Under the pieces are notes generated by a model. It was given only the letters and a program-made list of their open reading frames with translations. It did not search any database and was not told the DNA's origin. A program made the position numbers and the translations under genes. From Deltaproteobacteria bacterium (lineage in GTDB: Bacteria; Myxococcota_A; JAADFL01), in the NCBI GenBank assembly GCA_013152945.1, contig JAADFL010000209.1:1-41276 (forward strand): a stretch of 41,276 bases of DNA, in the 5' to 3' direction. Each line of letters begins with the position of its first letter. Position 1 is the first letter of the stretch. Below are positions 1-10,645 of this stretch, piece by piece.

Positions 1-136
1 TCCTTTCCCAGGTTGATTCCGACCCCAAACAGGGAAGGGGACGGATTGGAAATGGAACAGACCTGGTTTTCCCTGAGCTTTCTTGTTCATGCCCATGTCT
101 ATTTCACCTTGACGGAAATAGAAACCGATCCTTCGG
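1..136. other. Left-edge flank, no firm gene
   Basis: This is the 3' flank of the leftward 1005-residue gene. It holds an imperfect hairpin (arms at 18-25 and 37-44, 7 of 8 pairs). It also has a short leftward frame opening with ATG at 96, behind AGGTGA, that is still open at position 1 (32 codons). The encoded residues match nothing I recognise. It could be the start of a truncated gene or just repeat-like non-coding DNA. Confidence 0.25.
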
Positions 137-3100
137 CTACTGCTGACCAGCCAACTTCTCGAATTGCTGCAAATACCTGTCGGCGTTCGAAAGATAGAAC
201 GCCAGGGCTTTCTCGAACCGTTTCCCGACCAGACCATTGAGCAACATCTCGGAAATTACCTTTTTCCGCTTCAGCACTTGCTGTGAACACAGCAGGAACT
301 GCTTTTCTTCCGACGACATCTGCGCCATCTGCTGCTTCAGGGCGATCCTAGCTCGCGGTTGATACATCCAGAAGCAGAGCAAATCGAGTGCATCGATGAC
401 GATGTCACGAAACAACCCGGGATCCTTTTCCCGCAACTGTTCGAAGACGTCCTTGGGATTCTCAAGCAATGTCAAGACCTCGTCATCCGGGAAGGTCGTC
501 TCCAGCCGTCCGTACACATCATAGACTTGGGTGAGCTTTTCCTCATAATCCGCCTTTCGATGGGCCAGGTTGCGCTGGCGGTCGGCGGTCCCCTCGATGA
601 TAGCCGCGACAAAATCCGACGCCGTCTTGGAAATGACCGCAGCCCAAAGCTGCATGCCCGCCAATGCGACTTCGGATGAAACACCGTATGAGGTGATTAA
701 CCAAAGGATAACGAAGTTCAGGCCCAAGGCCACGGGGATGGAAAGGATGGTCCTGAAGAAGTTGCCGACGATCGCTCCCAGCGGCAAGCCGCGGTACGTG
801 TTGTGACTCGAAATATAGATTCCATTGGCCAAAGCGATGACCGTGTAGAGCAACAACGGATTGGTTGCCGTCGTGATGTTGAAGCTCCGCGCCAGGAGCA
901 GGTCCTTTACCAGAAAGTCAAGCAACGGCACCGAAAATCCGGTAAACAAAAGAGAGTCGGCTACGCGCCCCCAGGAGACGAGATCCTTCCATTCCAGCAG
1001 TGAAGACCTGAATAACCCGCCGCCGCCGACAACCGACTGAAGGATATTTCGTAATCCCGTGATGCCGAACCAGATCACCGCCCCGAAATAGGCTAACAGC
1101 CACCAGTCCTTTGTCAGGTAAAACGTCAGGAATGCCGGAATGAAGCCGATGAAGATCTTTGCGGCATTCATGACCCCGGAATTCAAGTGAATCATGCTCA
1201 GCCGAAGCTTGGGCGCTTCGGTTGCCGATTGCAAGAGGGACAGTCCGTTGTTTGTCTGCTCGGACTTTCCTCCCAAAGACGCAATGTTTCCAGTGTCGGC
1301 CAAGGTCGTACTATTGTGCCCCACGGACCAGGTGATCTCCTTGGCGCGAGACTCGTGCGTGAGGACTTCAGCCGCAAGATCCCGACGCACCCGGAACTCT
1401 CGAACCGGAGCCGAACCGCCGCATACGGTCCTGACTTCTCGTATGGCCATGGTTGTGACCGGCAGCATTCGCTCGGGCTCACGCCGAATCTCACGGCGAG
1501 CCCGCCGGGGCAGACTGGGTGTAATAACTAGACCCATCCCCCGCGTGTGGCGTGAATGACCGATCGAGTCGCTCCCAAGACGGCTCCGTAATCGACTCGC
1601 ACTGTAGAATCCGAGCAGGGTCTTGAGATCTTTCAAAATCGCCCTGGTCTTGTCGATGGCGCCGGTGTCACTCGAATCTTTTTCGAGAGACGCCAAGATC
1701 TCCCGCACCATCCGTTTGGCCTCCACAACATTGCCGCTGTTGATAACCAGGCGGATGTCGTTGATCAGTCGCCGATGTTTGGTACGGCCCTGGGCCCAAT
1801 CTTTCAGGTTGAAAATCTCCAGGTGTGTTATCCGTCCTTTTCCGGTGTACAGCACTTCCAGCACATCCGACGGAGAGAGGTTCGACGGATTCAGCGTGAT
1901 GCGTGATCTACAGGGAAGCCGTCCCAGCTTGTCGAGCATGGCCGCCGGGTCCAAAGTAAGCATCTCGGGAACATCGTCCCCTTCGGCCGGTCTCTTCGGA
2001 TCCCATACCGTGGGGTTCTTCTCGGGTCTAAGGTAATCCTCCACCAGTGTCTCCGGAGTCAACTCGTTCAGTGACTCCACGAGAGCATGAATACGATCCC
2101 GGTCAGCCCGGGATGCTGTCCCGTAATTCTCGGAAAGCCGCTCTACCTTCTGTTTCAGATATGGCAAAAGGGTTCTATGTGCATACTCGGCAAGGTGCAC
2201 CAAAGAGGCCTGGCCGTGCCCGACTGAATTCAAGAAAGCTTTCTCCTCCAGTTGGGGCACATCAAGGCCGAACTTCTCGTTGATAGCCGGCAGATGGTTA
2301 TCATTGAAACTCTGCAGGAGTTTGAGGATATGCAACTTCTCGTACTCGACAACCGCCCGCCCCTGCATGAAAAACGCCTGGACTTCCGGTTCCTCCAAGA
2401 AGTGTAGAAAATCCTCGCGCCCCAGAAAACCGCGAGGCGACCAGATTAATTGGACGTACTTGTTCCGGAGACGGGCTTTCACCTCGACACCGATACGGAC
2501 GTCGATGCCCATGATGTTCGCGGCTTCGAGCAACTCCGCAGCTACCTCGGGCTTGATCTCGTTGTAGTAGATGACACCGAGAAAGCGAATACCCTTGATC
2601 CATGCATCCATGATCAGATGCGTCGGCGACTTGCGGCCCTTGGTGTTCGCGTCGTGAACATGGTGATCGAAGGCAAGCTGGTTCCATGATTCGGGCATCT
2701 CGAGAAGGTGGTACTTACGCAACTGTTTTCGAATGAGGCGCGGCTTTCCCGAGGATGCCTCCCGGAAATCATGGGCCAATGCAAGTTGCTTCGGCTCATC
2801 GCCTTTGGCCCGGACGATCTCCTTCATAATTTGCATTAACACCCTGGCCATGTTCATGCGATGTGTCTGGCTGCTGTCGTGCAACGACTCTGCCCGCGCA
2901 GCGCGTAATGCAGTGATGCGTTCCCCGGCGCTTCCGTAATCGAAAGTTCCCAGCAAATCAATCATGGCGGACGCGATTCGCAGGGACTTGGGTGCGGCCA
3001 GTCCCTTGATGCCGCGCGGGTGCAGCCCCGGTTCGAACAACCTCCGCAGGAGTGTTGGGTTCTTTCCCCGGGCAAGAATCTTGTTGACGATCTCCAGGAG

Positions 3101-8329: not shown

Positions 8330-10645
8330 ATGAAGCATGTTAACAGCATCAACCTTCTGCTTACGCTGACGGGACTCATCCTGGCTGCGCCGGCATGCTC
8401 AAACAACAACCAAGAATCCTGCACCCCGAATCAGCCCTATGGAATGGTATGTGCGTCCGCGGGCGGCACGGTCACCGGCGTCGGCGACTTGGCGGATGCC
8501 AGCATTGCCGTTCCGGCACGGGCTCTTTCGAAAAATACCCTGATAACCATATCAGCCGGTGATGAAATAATTCAATCAGGATACAAGGCAGCCGGGCCGC
8601 CCGTGTCTTTTCAGCCGAACGGCACGCTCTTTTCAAAGCCGGCAACCTTTACCATCCCTTACGAGATTCCGGGCGGCAGGTCCGCGGATGAAATAACGGT
8701 ATTCCACTTCTCGAACAAGGTGGATATCATTCCGGCCGATGCAGTCGATTACAACGAAGATACATCGACGATAAAATTCACCGCAACCACCATGGGCACA
8801 TTTGAACCAGCACTTTCAAACAAGGCCACCGGTAAACGCCATTACACGTACAGGGCCATTGCAGGATTTTCCATGGGTGGAGCAAGCGCAATCGCACTTG
8901 GAACCTTAAGACCGGACCTGTTCGACGTTATAGCGCCCCAAGGAACGGCCGTGGACATATTCCATTTCCTCAACTACCTGAAATATGCCGCCCTGGGCGG
9001 TTTCTGCAAACCCGGTGAAAAGCCTACCGCCGACGGATCCATGTGCCCCAACAATCCTTTGCCCTGTTTCGTCTCCGGACCAAAGGAATACTTTGCAAAC
9101 GCAGTCTCGTGCGGAGCCAACTACCCGTATCATTTTGAACGAATGGACTGCGGCGGGCCGAGGGCAGGCGGATTCGACAGGGATTCCATGATAGAGGCCT
9201 TTCAGGACATGACTAACGCCTTCGGCAATGCCATGTCGTACAACCCGGTCCACCCGTTCCTCCCGGCCGGCGTGTCCAGTTCATATTATTGGAATGACAA
9301 CGGCACAAAGAGATCCAGGCAGGAAAGATGCGATAATCCGGTTGTTGTAGACAAGATCTACGACCGGGTCTACAACCCGGACGGAACTTACAAGGCCATC
9401 ACATTTTGCGACGGCAACTCGGACGAGCAAGGCGTGTTCGACCCCAATGCCCCGAACGACTGGCCGACGGACATCCTCCTCGCCATAGACTACAACGGCA
9501 ACCTGAAGAGAGACCCGGGAGAGCCCGTGCTGTTCCAAATGAGTGAACCATTTGATGACGTAGGCGAGGATGGACTTGCCGACAAGGATGAACCCGGGTT
9601 CGACGCGAAGAACAATCCGGACCCTGCGAATGACGACTATGACATGATGAACAACCCGCTCGGCACCGAGGGAAACGGCAAGTACGACAAGGGGGAACCA
9701 TATGAAGATCTGGGTATCGATGGAGTCGCCTGCCCGGGTGACTGTCCTTGGGATTATGGAGAAGGAAACAACAAGTTCGACTACAACCCGAACATGAAGC
9801 AATACTTCGACTTCAACCCGACCGACCTGATAAAGAAAATGGATCCCAAGGAGTTGGCACGAATAGACTTCTATATCGATGTGGGATACAGGGACCACTT
9901 GTTCTTTGGCCCTAATACGTTCAGTTTTGTGGGCGTGCTCAAAGCCCTTGGCTGGGATTTCGGAATATACAAGGGATTTCACGAATTGATTCCCAACGCA
10001 AAAAAGTTCGACTTCAGCAAGGTGCCATGGTCACAACTTCCAAAGAACATCCTCGTAATATACGGTGACAGGACAAAGTCTGAAGAAGAGGCAAGGACAA
10101 CCGGAGATGGCGGCCACGTGGGCACTTCGATGCAGGTCATCAACAGGGCATTGGTGTTCCTTGGTTATGTGGGCGCTCACTGGCCGGGCGGGGATTATGA
10201 ACCCACCGACGAGGTGGGCAACAAGGGAGGAGAAGCCCAATACTATGAAAGCAAGTTGCCGGGCCTCGAGGGTGTGAAGAAAGAATTCTTCGTGTACGAG
10301 CCGCCCGGTTACGAGCCGCCCGACGAAAACGGCAAATGCAAGAAGAGATACCCTGTCCTGTACTCCTTGCACGGCATCGGCATGAAACCAGAGGATCAAT
10401 TGGCCGCCCCACTGCTTTTCGAGCCCAAGATGCAGGCCGGCCTGGCACAAAAATTCCTGGTTGTCGTACCTGACGGCAGGTGCATGAAAGATGAATGCGC
10501 AAGCGGACAGTTCTATTACAATACCGTGGGTTGGGGAGTTCCAGGCAAACCGCACATGGACTCCTTCTTCAACGAACTGATTCCGTACGTTGATGCCCAC
10601 TGGTGCACGAAAAAGCCTGAAGACGTGGAAAACCCGCCCTGGTAG
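8330..10645 (+). CDS. Secreted esterase with circularly permuted alpha/beta-hydrolase domain, ZU5-like and calcium-loop regions
   Basis: This 771-residue exported protein starts after GGAGGA, with a signal peptide ending at A-A-P-A-C-S (Cys about 23; weak lipobox). Residues about 40-165 look like a ZU5-type beta domain. The hydrolase motifs of the esterase D/feruloyl-esterase type follow in an unusual order. The nucleophile elbow G-F-S181-M-G-G comes first, then candidate acid D522 and His551 (G-F-H-E). Only then come the normal N-terminal parts: the E-F-F-V-Y-E-P-P-G-Y strand, the oxyanion H681-G682, P-D-G-R near 712, and a final helix ending in P-Y-V-D. In a usual family member this last block precedes the elbow. 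Between elbow and acid lie Asp/Asn/Gly-rich loops (about 385-490) resembling calcium-binding repeats. It is probably a surface or periplasmic carboxylesterase; the substrate is unknown. Confidence 0.8.
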   Translation: MKHVNSINLLLTLTGLILAAPACSNNNQESCTPNQPYGMVCASAGGTVTGVGDLADASIAVPARALSKNTLITISAGDEIIQSGYKAAGPPVSFQPNGTLFSKPATFTIPYEIPGGRSADEITVFHFSNKVDIIPADAVDYNEDTSTIKFTATTMGTFEPALSNKATGKRHYTYRAIAGFSMGGASAIALGTLRPDLFDVIAPQGTAVDIFHFLNYLKYAALGGFCKPGEKPTADGSMCPNNPLPCFVSGPKEYFANAVSCGANYPYHFERMDCGGPRAGGFDRDSMIEAFQDMTNAFGNAMSYNPVHPFLPAGVSSSYYWNDNGTKRSRQERCDNPVVVDKIYDRVYNPDGTYKAITFCDGNSDEQGVFDPNAPNDWPTDILLAIDYNGNLKRDPGEPVLFQMSEPFDDVGEDGLADKDEPGFDAKNNPDPANDDYDMMNNPLGTEGNGKYDKGEPYEDLGIDGVACPGDCPWDYGEGNNKFDYNPNMKQYFDFNPTDLIKKMDPKELARIDFYIDVGYRDHLFFGPNTFSFVGVLKALGWDFGIYKGFHELIPNAKKFDFSKVPWSQLPKNILVIYGDRTKSEEEARTTGDGGHVGTSMQVINRALVFLGYVGAHWPGGDYEPTDEVGNKGGEAQYYESKLPGLEGVKKEFFVYEPPGYEPPDENGKCKKRYPVLYSLHGIGMKPEDQLAAPLLFEPKMQAGLAQKFLVVVPDGRCMKDECASGQFYYNTVGWGVPGKPHMDSFFNELIPYVDAHWCTKKPEDVENPPW

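What the first reader, a model, noticed from the sequence alone, without database searches (positions are those of the whole stretch)
8330..10645. Esterase with hydrolase motifs in circularly permuted order
In esterase D-type hydrolases the order is oxyanion HG, PDG, helix ending P-Y-V-D, then G-x-S-M-G-G, Asp, His. Here the serine elbow (181), Asp522 and His551 come first. The strand, HG (681-682), PDG and the P-Y-V-D helix come last, and the protein ends exactly where the elbow would follow. Calcium-loop repeats and a ZU5-like domain are inserted around it.
Basis: partly seen in the sequence, partly recalled or inferred. Interest (0 to 1): 0.65.

Follow-up and report, generated by a model that had tools for sequence, protein, structure and literature searches.

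The report
Naturally circularly permuted esterase family
This gene encodes a secreted ester-cutting enzyme whose chain has been naturally re-cut, so that its back half comes first and its front half last; the same arrangement is kept in about a hundred related bacteria, so it is real and old, although one other enzyme family (type 2 PHB depolymerases) was already known to have this order.

Summary
ORF 8330-10645 (771 aa) is a putative lipoprotein with an ankyrin-type ZU5-like domain, then a PF00756/CE1 (feruloyl esterase/esterase D-like) hydrolase in circularly permuted order: β5-elbow(S181)-β6-cap-β7(D522)-αE-β8-(H596)-αF-linker-β1-β2-β3(H681-G682)-αA-β4(PDG)-αB-stop. The C-block matches Pfam PF00756 positions 9-114 and the N-block 111-144; rejoined, they score as one domain. 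It is not a truncated tandem: all 104 distinct relatives examined, from Myxococcota and 'Deltaproteobacteria' MAGs, keep this order and end at the same place (one is cut by a contig end), and none has a second hydrolase domain. Two AlphaFold models (pLDDT 88.6 and 92.1) align best, over both blocks, with the Penicillium type-2 PHB depolymerase (2D80/2D81), which has the same element order; canonical esterases align to one half or the other. Correction: the catalytic His is almost certainly the invariant H596 (67/67), not H551 (mostly A/S/P/D). The Ca-loop-like repeats lie in a ~275-aa insertion at the usual cap position. The order is precedented by type-2 PHB depolymerases, but sequence points to a separate permutation in the PF00756/CE1 lineage. 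Substrate unknown.

The parts
8330..8398 (+). Signal peptide with lipobox-like APAC; Cys23 the putative lipidated residue (aa 1-23)
   Evidence: translation; C23 conserved in 90% of 42 relatives
8435..8824 (+). ZU5-like beta domain, aa 36-165 (absent in the shortest relatives)
   Evidence: VIA-align Z 11-13 to ankyrin ZU5 structures; Pfam ZU5 only below cut-off, E 0.085
8834..8974 (+). N-block of hydrolase: beta5, nucleophile elbow GFSMGG (S181 at 8870-8872), alphaC, beta6 (aa 169-215)
   Evidence: PF00756 model 111-144; S181 67/67
8975..9799 (+). Cap insertion between beta6 and beta7 (aa 216-490), including Ca-loop-like acidic repeats at 9467-9769 (aa 380-480)
   Evidence: D387, E398, D410, D435, E456, D460, D464, D475 identical in 67/67; pLDDT mostly above 90 from aa 280 on
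9800..10177 (+). beta7-D522 (9893-9895)-alphaE-beta8-H596 (10115-10117)-alphaF (aa 491-616)
   Evidence: G519xxD522 and GDGxH596VG: G519, D522, G594, H596, G598 identical in 67/67; secondary structure
9980..9982 (+).
   Evidence: column mostly A/S/P/D/T in 67 homologues
10178..10231 (+). Linker joining the canonical C-terminus (after alphaF) to the canonical N-terminus (beta1) (aa 617-634)
   Evidence: DSSP of model and variable length and sequence in alignment
10232..10609 (+). C-block of hydrolase: beta1, beta2, beta3, oxyanion HG (H681-G682 at 10370-10375), alphaA, beta4-PDG, alphaB ending PYVDAHW (aa 635-760); stop 10643-10645
   Evidence: PF00756 model 9-114; matches N-terminal halves of CE1 esterases

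Best explanation
The gene encodes an exported, probably lipid-anchored serine ester hydrolase of the PF00756/CE1 (feruloyl esterase/esterase D-like) lineage that has undergone a natural circular permutation. The new termini lie in the alphaB-beta5 loop, just ahead of the nucleophile elbow, and an ~18-residue linker joins the old C-terminus (after alphaF) to the old N-terminus (beta1). Inferred mechanism: S181 attacks an ester, with H596 as base, D522 as acid and the backbone NH groups of M182 and I683 (following H681-G682) as oxyanion hole, so two ends of the chain assemble one ordinary active site. A ~275-aa cap between beta6 and beta7, with invariant acidic loops that look Ca-binding, probably shapes or stabilises the substrate cleft. 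The ZU5-like domain is an optional N-terminal module. The permutation most likely arose by tandem duplication of an ancestral CE1 gene followed by loss of the outer halves (inferred). Shown: order, family-wide conservation, complementarity of halves, predicted fold topology. Inferred: catalysis, Ca binding, lipidation, route of origin. Substrate unknown.
For: PF00756 halves complementary and additive. PDB profile hits abut in CE1 enzymes, E 6e-24 and 1e-24. 118 of 377 genomes of the phylum match the protein and 154 relatives were found in genome contigs. 124 family ORFs, 104 distinct, 123 in the same permuted order and one cut by a contig end, while seven of eight canonical relatives fetched from the same phylum show HG-block then elbow. 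AF2 models pLDDT 88.6/pTM 0.87 and 92.1/pTM 0.90. VIA best match 2D80/2D81, Z 14.2 and 17.7, 232-238 residues, model 172..759 and 35..584 on chain 30..338; the offset puts S181 and S44 on S39 if that stretch is ungapped. Most canonical hydrolases align to one half only. Catalytic residues invariant in 67 homologues. Tandem PF00756 domains exist in one chain in Hymenobacter.
Against: No coordinates were returned, so distances between S181, D522, H596 and G682 were not measured. The post-elbow part (after PF00756 position 145) is too diverged for a Pfam match, so D522 and H596 rest on motif context and invariance. The spacing D522 to H551 (29) looks more canonical than D522 to H596 (74). No activity data. 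No intermediate (tandem, half-lost) form of this family was found.
Confidence: 0.88

Rival explanations
1. The family is a divergent branch of type-2 extracellular PHB depolymerases and inherited their permutation, rather than being permuted independently.
For: Same element order and best structural match 2D80/2D81; order Ser-Asp-His-oxyanion documented for type 2 (PMC2666664; residues in PMC7034887).
Against: 0 of 35 family members match the type-2 model NF050059 at E<=0.1; 2D80 is absent at E<=10 from a family-profile search of PDB sequences that finds CE1 esterases at 1e-24; 34 of 35 members match PF00756; some match type-1, xylanase/feruloyl-esterase and FghA models instead.
Confidence: 0.15
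2. A tandem pair of hydrolase domains was truncated at both ends, leaving two half domains that do not form one active site.
For: Tandem PF00756 domains do occur in one chain (Hymenobacter plasmid); tandem gene copies exist in L114.
Against: No homologue has an extra half; relatives end within 4-28 aa (median 11) of the same alphaB position; active-site residues of both halves are invariant; models place both halves on the 2D80 topology.
Confidence: 0.03
3. The fold is permuted as described but the protein is a non-catalytic binding or structural protein.
For: No substrate or activity known; large cap and ZU5-like domain suggest binding functions; no conserved neighbourhood was apparent.
Against: Ser, Asp, His and the oxyanion Gly are invariant in 67 of 67 homologues, which pseudo-enzymes rarely show.
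Confidence: 0.1

Closest known systems
Type-2 catalytic-domain extracellular PHB depolymerases (Penicillium funiculosum 2D80/2D81; NCBIfam NF050059)
   Same: Alpha/beta hydrolase with order Ser-Asp-His-oxyanion, N-terminus just ahead of the elbow strand; best structural match of both models (Z 14.2 and 17.7)
   Different: No detectable sequence relation (0/35 at E<=0.1; absent at E<=10 in the PDB sequence search); this family has a ~275-aa Ca-loop-like cap, an optional ZU5-like domain and an esterase-type LHGxG oxyanion motif
CE1 feruloyl/acetyl xylan esterases and esterase D-like proteins (PF00756; 7xrt, 1jjf, 8z91, 3fcx)
   Same: Sequence relation across both blocks (E about 1e-24 for the profile; PF00756 above cut-off); elbow GxSMGG, HG oxyanion motif
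   Different: Order of the two halves is swapped; long cap between beta6 and beta7; His at a longer spacing from Asp
ZU5 domains of ankyrins, UNC5 and ZO-1
   Same: N-terminal domain fold, Z 11-13 to ankyrin ZU5, about 8 to UNC5b and ZO-1
   Different: Below Pfam ZU5 cut-off by sequence; here part of a putative bacterial lipoprotein esterase and absent in the shortest relatives

Membership tests
PF00756 Esterase / CE1 lineage | Pfam score above curated cut-off (22 bits) | tested here: met
   35.8 bits for the window protein; 34/35 relatives match at E<=0.1
PF00756 Esterase / CE1 lineage | Canonical order: HG, PDG, alphaB, elbow, Asp, His | tested here: not met
   123 of 124 family ORFs have elbow and acid/His first, HG block last, the other is cut by a contig end; canonical relatives differ. 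So it is a permuted relative, not an ordinary member
PF00756 Esterase / CE1 lineage | Ser-Asp-His residues and oxyanion Gly | tested here: met
   S181, D522, H596, G682 identical in 67/67; geometry not measured
[quoted passage not shown]
   H681-G682 after S181, D522, H596; definition in PMC2666664
Type-2 extracellular PHB depolymerase | Sequence match to NF050059 (e_dPHAscl_type2, cut-off 280 bits) | tested here: not met
   No match at E<=1 for P0001, 0/35 members at E<=0.1, none in the own genome
Type-2 extracellular PHB depolymerase | PHB hydrolysis | not testable with these tools
   needs an enzyme assay
Circularly permuted alpha/beta hydrolase fold (topology) | Both blocks form one alpha/beta sandwich with new termini in one loop | tested here: met
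   Two predicted models align over both blocks to 2D80/2D81; predicted, not solved
ZU5 domain | ZU5 fold | tested here: met
   aa 36-165, Z 11-13 to ankyrin ZU5; sequence match below cut-off

The most novel reading that the evidence does not exclude
Probability: 0.7. Interest if true: 0.58.

Novelty: new variant of a known kind. Interest (0 to 1): 0.52.

Why it matters
[quoted passage not shown] the one clear precedent found here is the type-2 PHB depolymerases. A family of at least 104 distinct proteins, with recognisable canonical relatives in the same phylum, offers a direct test of how permutation arises (tandem duplication and loss) and whether the alphaB-beta5 loop is a preferred cut point, because two apparently unrelated lineages were cut there. 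It also shows that annotation by order-dependent domain models sees only fragments of such enzymes.

Tried and rejected
Truncated second copy or frameshift at the 3' end: rejected, since relatives end at the same alphaB position. H551 as catalytic His: rejected on conservation. Unpermuted relatives carrying the same Ca-loop insertion: none found; the only other carrier in 57 genomes is an LptD-like protein. Conserved operon partner: none apparent in 80 loci, the shared clusters looked mostly like overlapping-frame artefacts. Type-2 PHB depolymerase by sequence: no match. First genome-contig scan with the single protein found nothing and the 35-row alignment was too diverse to search with; an 11-row alignment worked. 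Literature: no paper in the held library found that describes a permuted PF00756/CE1 esterase; most subscription papers are not held.

Full report
Observation. The ORF 8330-10645 on the + strand encodes 771 aa. Pfam gives PF00756 (Esterase) at E=9.6e-9 in two stretches. Scanned apart, the C-block (aa 636-771) matches model positions 9-114 and the N-block (aa 165-620) positions 111-144; rejoined in canonical order, with most of the insert left out, they give one hit over 9-145 with 41.8 bits, about the sum of the two (20.7 and 19.7). The halves are therefore complementary and barely overlap, as a permutation predicts and a truncated duplicate does not.

Homologues. The protein matches 118 of 377 genomes of the same phylum, although the weakest of these matches cover only the ZU5-like or Ca-loop part, and an 11-row alignment finds 154 relatives in genome contigs, titled Myxococcota, Myxococcales, 'Deltaproteobacteria', Kofleriaceae, Sandaracinaceae, Polyangiaceae and the like; 80 were fetched. 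Across all loci, block HMMs give 124 family ORFs, 104 of them distinct; 123 have the order [ZU5]-elbow-insert-Ca-loop-acid/His-HG block, and one lacks the last block at a contig end. The stop falls 4-28 aa (median 11) after the alphaB end, and the shortest members start about 40 aa before the nucleophile, signal peptide included. Eight lower-scoring hits of the C-block in the same phylum were fetched: seven show HG block then elbow, the canonical order, and the eighth has a weak HG-block hit only. A Hymenobacter plasmid protein has two complete HG-elbow units in tandem, confirmed as two PF00756 stretches. So the kind of duplication that precedes circular permutation does occur in PF00756 proteins, though no intermediate of this family itself was found.

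Active site. S181, D522 (GxxD) and H596 (GDGxHVG), with G682 and G684, are identical in 67 of 67 aligned relatives, H681 in 64; the H551 column is mostly A, S, P, D or T. H596 lies just ahead of helix 600-616, the usual place of the catalytic His before alphaF. In the family-profile alignment with CE1 enzyme 7xrt the D522 region falls on the 'CGDDDF' segment of 7xrt, though that stretch alone is not significant.

Structure. AlphaFold2 models of the window protein (pLDDT 88.6, pTM 0.87) and of the 593-aa relative L047 (pLDDT 92.1, pTM 0.90) were compared with the PDB. By VIA-align the best match of both is the Penicillium funiculosum PHB depolymerase: Z 14.2, 233 residues, rmsd 3.4, model 172..759 on chain 30..338 (2D80), and Z 17.7, 236 residues, rmsd 3.4, model 35..584 on chain 30..338 (2D81). 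In both cases the start offset places our serine (S181, S44) on S39 of that enzyme, if the first nine positions are ungapped. Canonical esterases align in halves: 169..621 on the C-terminal half of 7xrt, or 626..763 on the N-terminal half of 8bf3; a few rows stray a little into the other block. This is what a permuted chain gives with order-preserving aligners, and it shows the C-block completing the sheet rather than forming a separate domain. Atomic distances could not be measured because no coordinates are returned. Foldseek's own ranking by E-value puts ZU5 and CE1 half-matches first and 2D81 at rank 27 for the window model, with the longest aligned stretch (281 columns) among the esterase hits. 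Residues 36-165 are a ZU5-like domain (Z 11-13 to ankyrin ZU5). The insertion of aa 216-490 sits between beta6 and beta7, where alpha/beta hydrolases usually carry their caps (PMC11878206), and holds invariant acidic loops (D387xNxNxxxDxxE398, D410xGxD414, D460xGxD464) that look like Ca-binding loops (inference).

Comparison with the known. The order Ser-Asp-His-oxyanion is the defining feature of type-2 catalytic domains of extracellular PHB depolymerases (PMC2666664; S39, H155, C250 in PMC7034887). By topology this family works like those. By sequence it is not shown to be one of them: none of 35 members matches the type-2 model NF050059 at E<=0.1, and 2D80 does not appear at E<=10 where CE1 esterases score 1e-24, whereas 34 of 35 match PF00756. 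The best reading is an independent permutation at the same loop in the CE1/esterase D lineage; a shared, very old permutation is not excluded.

Mechanism and function. Inferred: an exported serine esterase, probably an outer-membrane lipoprotein (C23 with Ser at +2), acting on ester bonds of extracellular or surface polymers; substrate unknown. No conserved neighbours were apparent. The window neighbours (MlaC, CYTH, radical SAM aminomutase-like) give no functional clue. The genome has two other PF00756 matches above cut-off and this one.

Verdict. It is a new variant of a known kind, because natural permutation of this fold was already known in type-2 PHB depolymerases.

Noticed in passing
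L019 (G054:C47:6673-6843), aa 434-485 of an 818-aa ORF: A protein that looks like LptD (LPS assembly; recognised by eye, not scanned) carries a segment 47% identical to the Ca-loop region of this family; the acidic loop module may be mobile between unrelated outer-membrane proteins.
   Followed up: partly
L114:3869-6133 and L114:6447-8711: Two permuted esterase genes of this family lie in tandem in one Myxococcales MAG.
   Followed up: no
L149 (NZ_CP094673.1, Hymenobacter tibetensis plasmid): Single 642-aa protein with two complete canonical PF00756 domains in tandem, next to a GH43 gene; a living example of the duplication needed for permutation.
   Followed up: partly
window:3689-6640 (-): Fusion of nucleotidyltransferase and CDP-alcohol phosphatidyltransferase beside myo-inositol-1-phosphate synthase; resembles a di-myo-inositol-phosphate or inositol-lipid pathway pair.
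   Followed up: no
window:8702-8710 (aa 125-127): The ZU5-like domain contains HFS, the motif cleaved in PIDD-type ZU5 domains, but it is absent in the relatives looked at, so probably chance.
   Followed up: partly
window:15334-18509: Convergent neighbouring radical SAM proteins with B12-binding domains (one + strand, one - strand).
   Followed up: no
window:137-3154 (-) and window:12086-13801 (-): Two long ORFs (1005 and 571 aa) without any Pfam match at E<=0.001.
   Followed up: no
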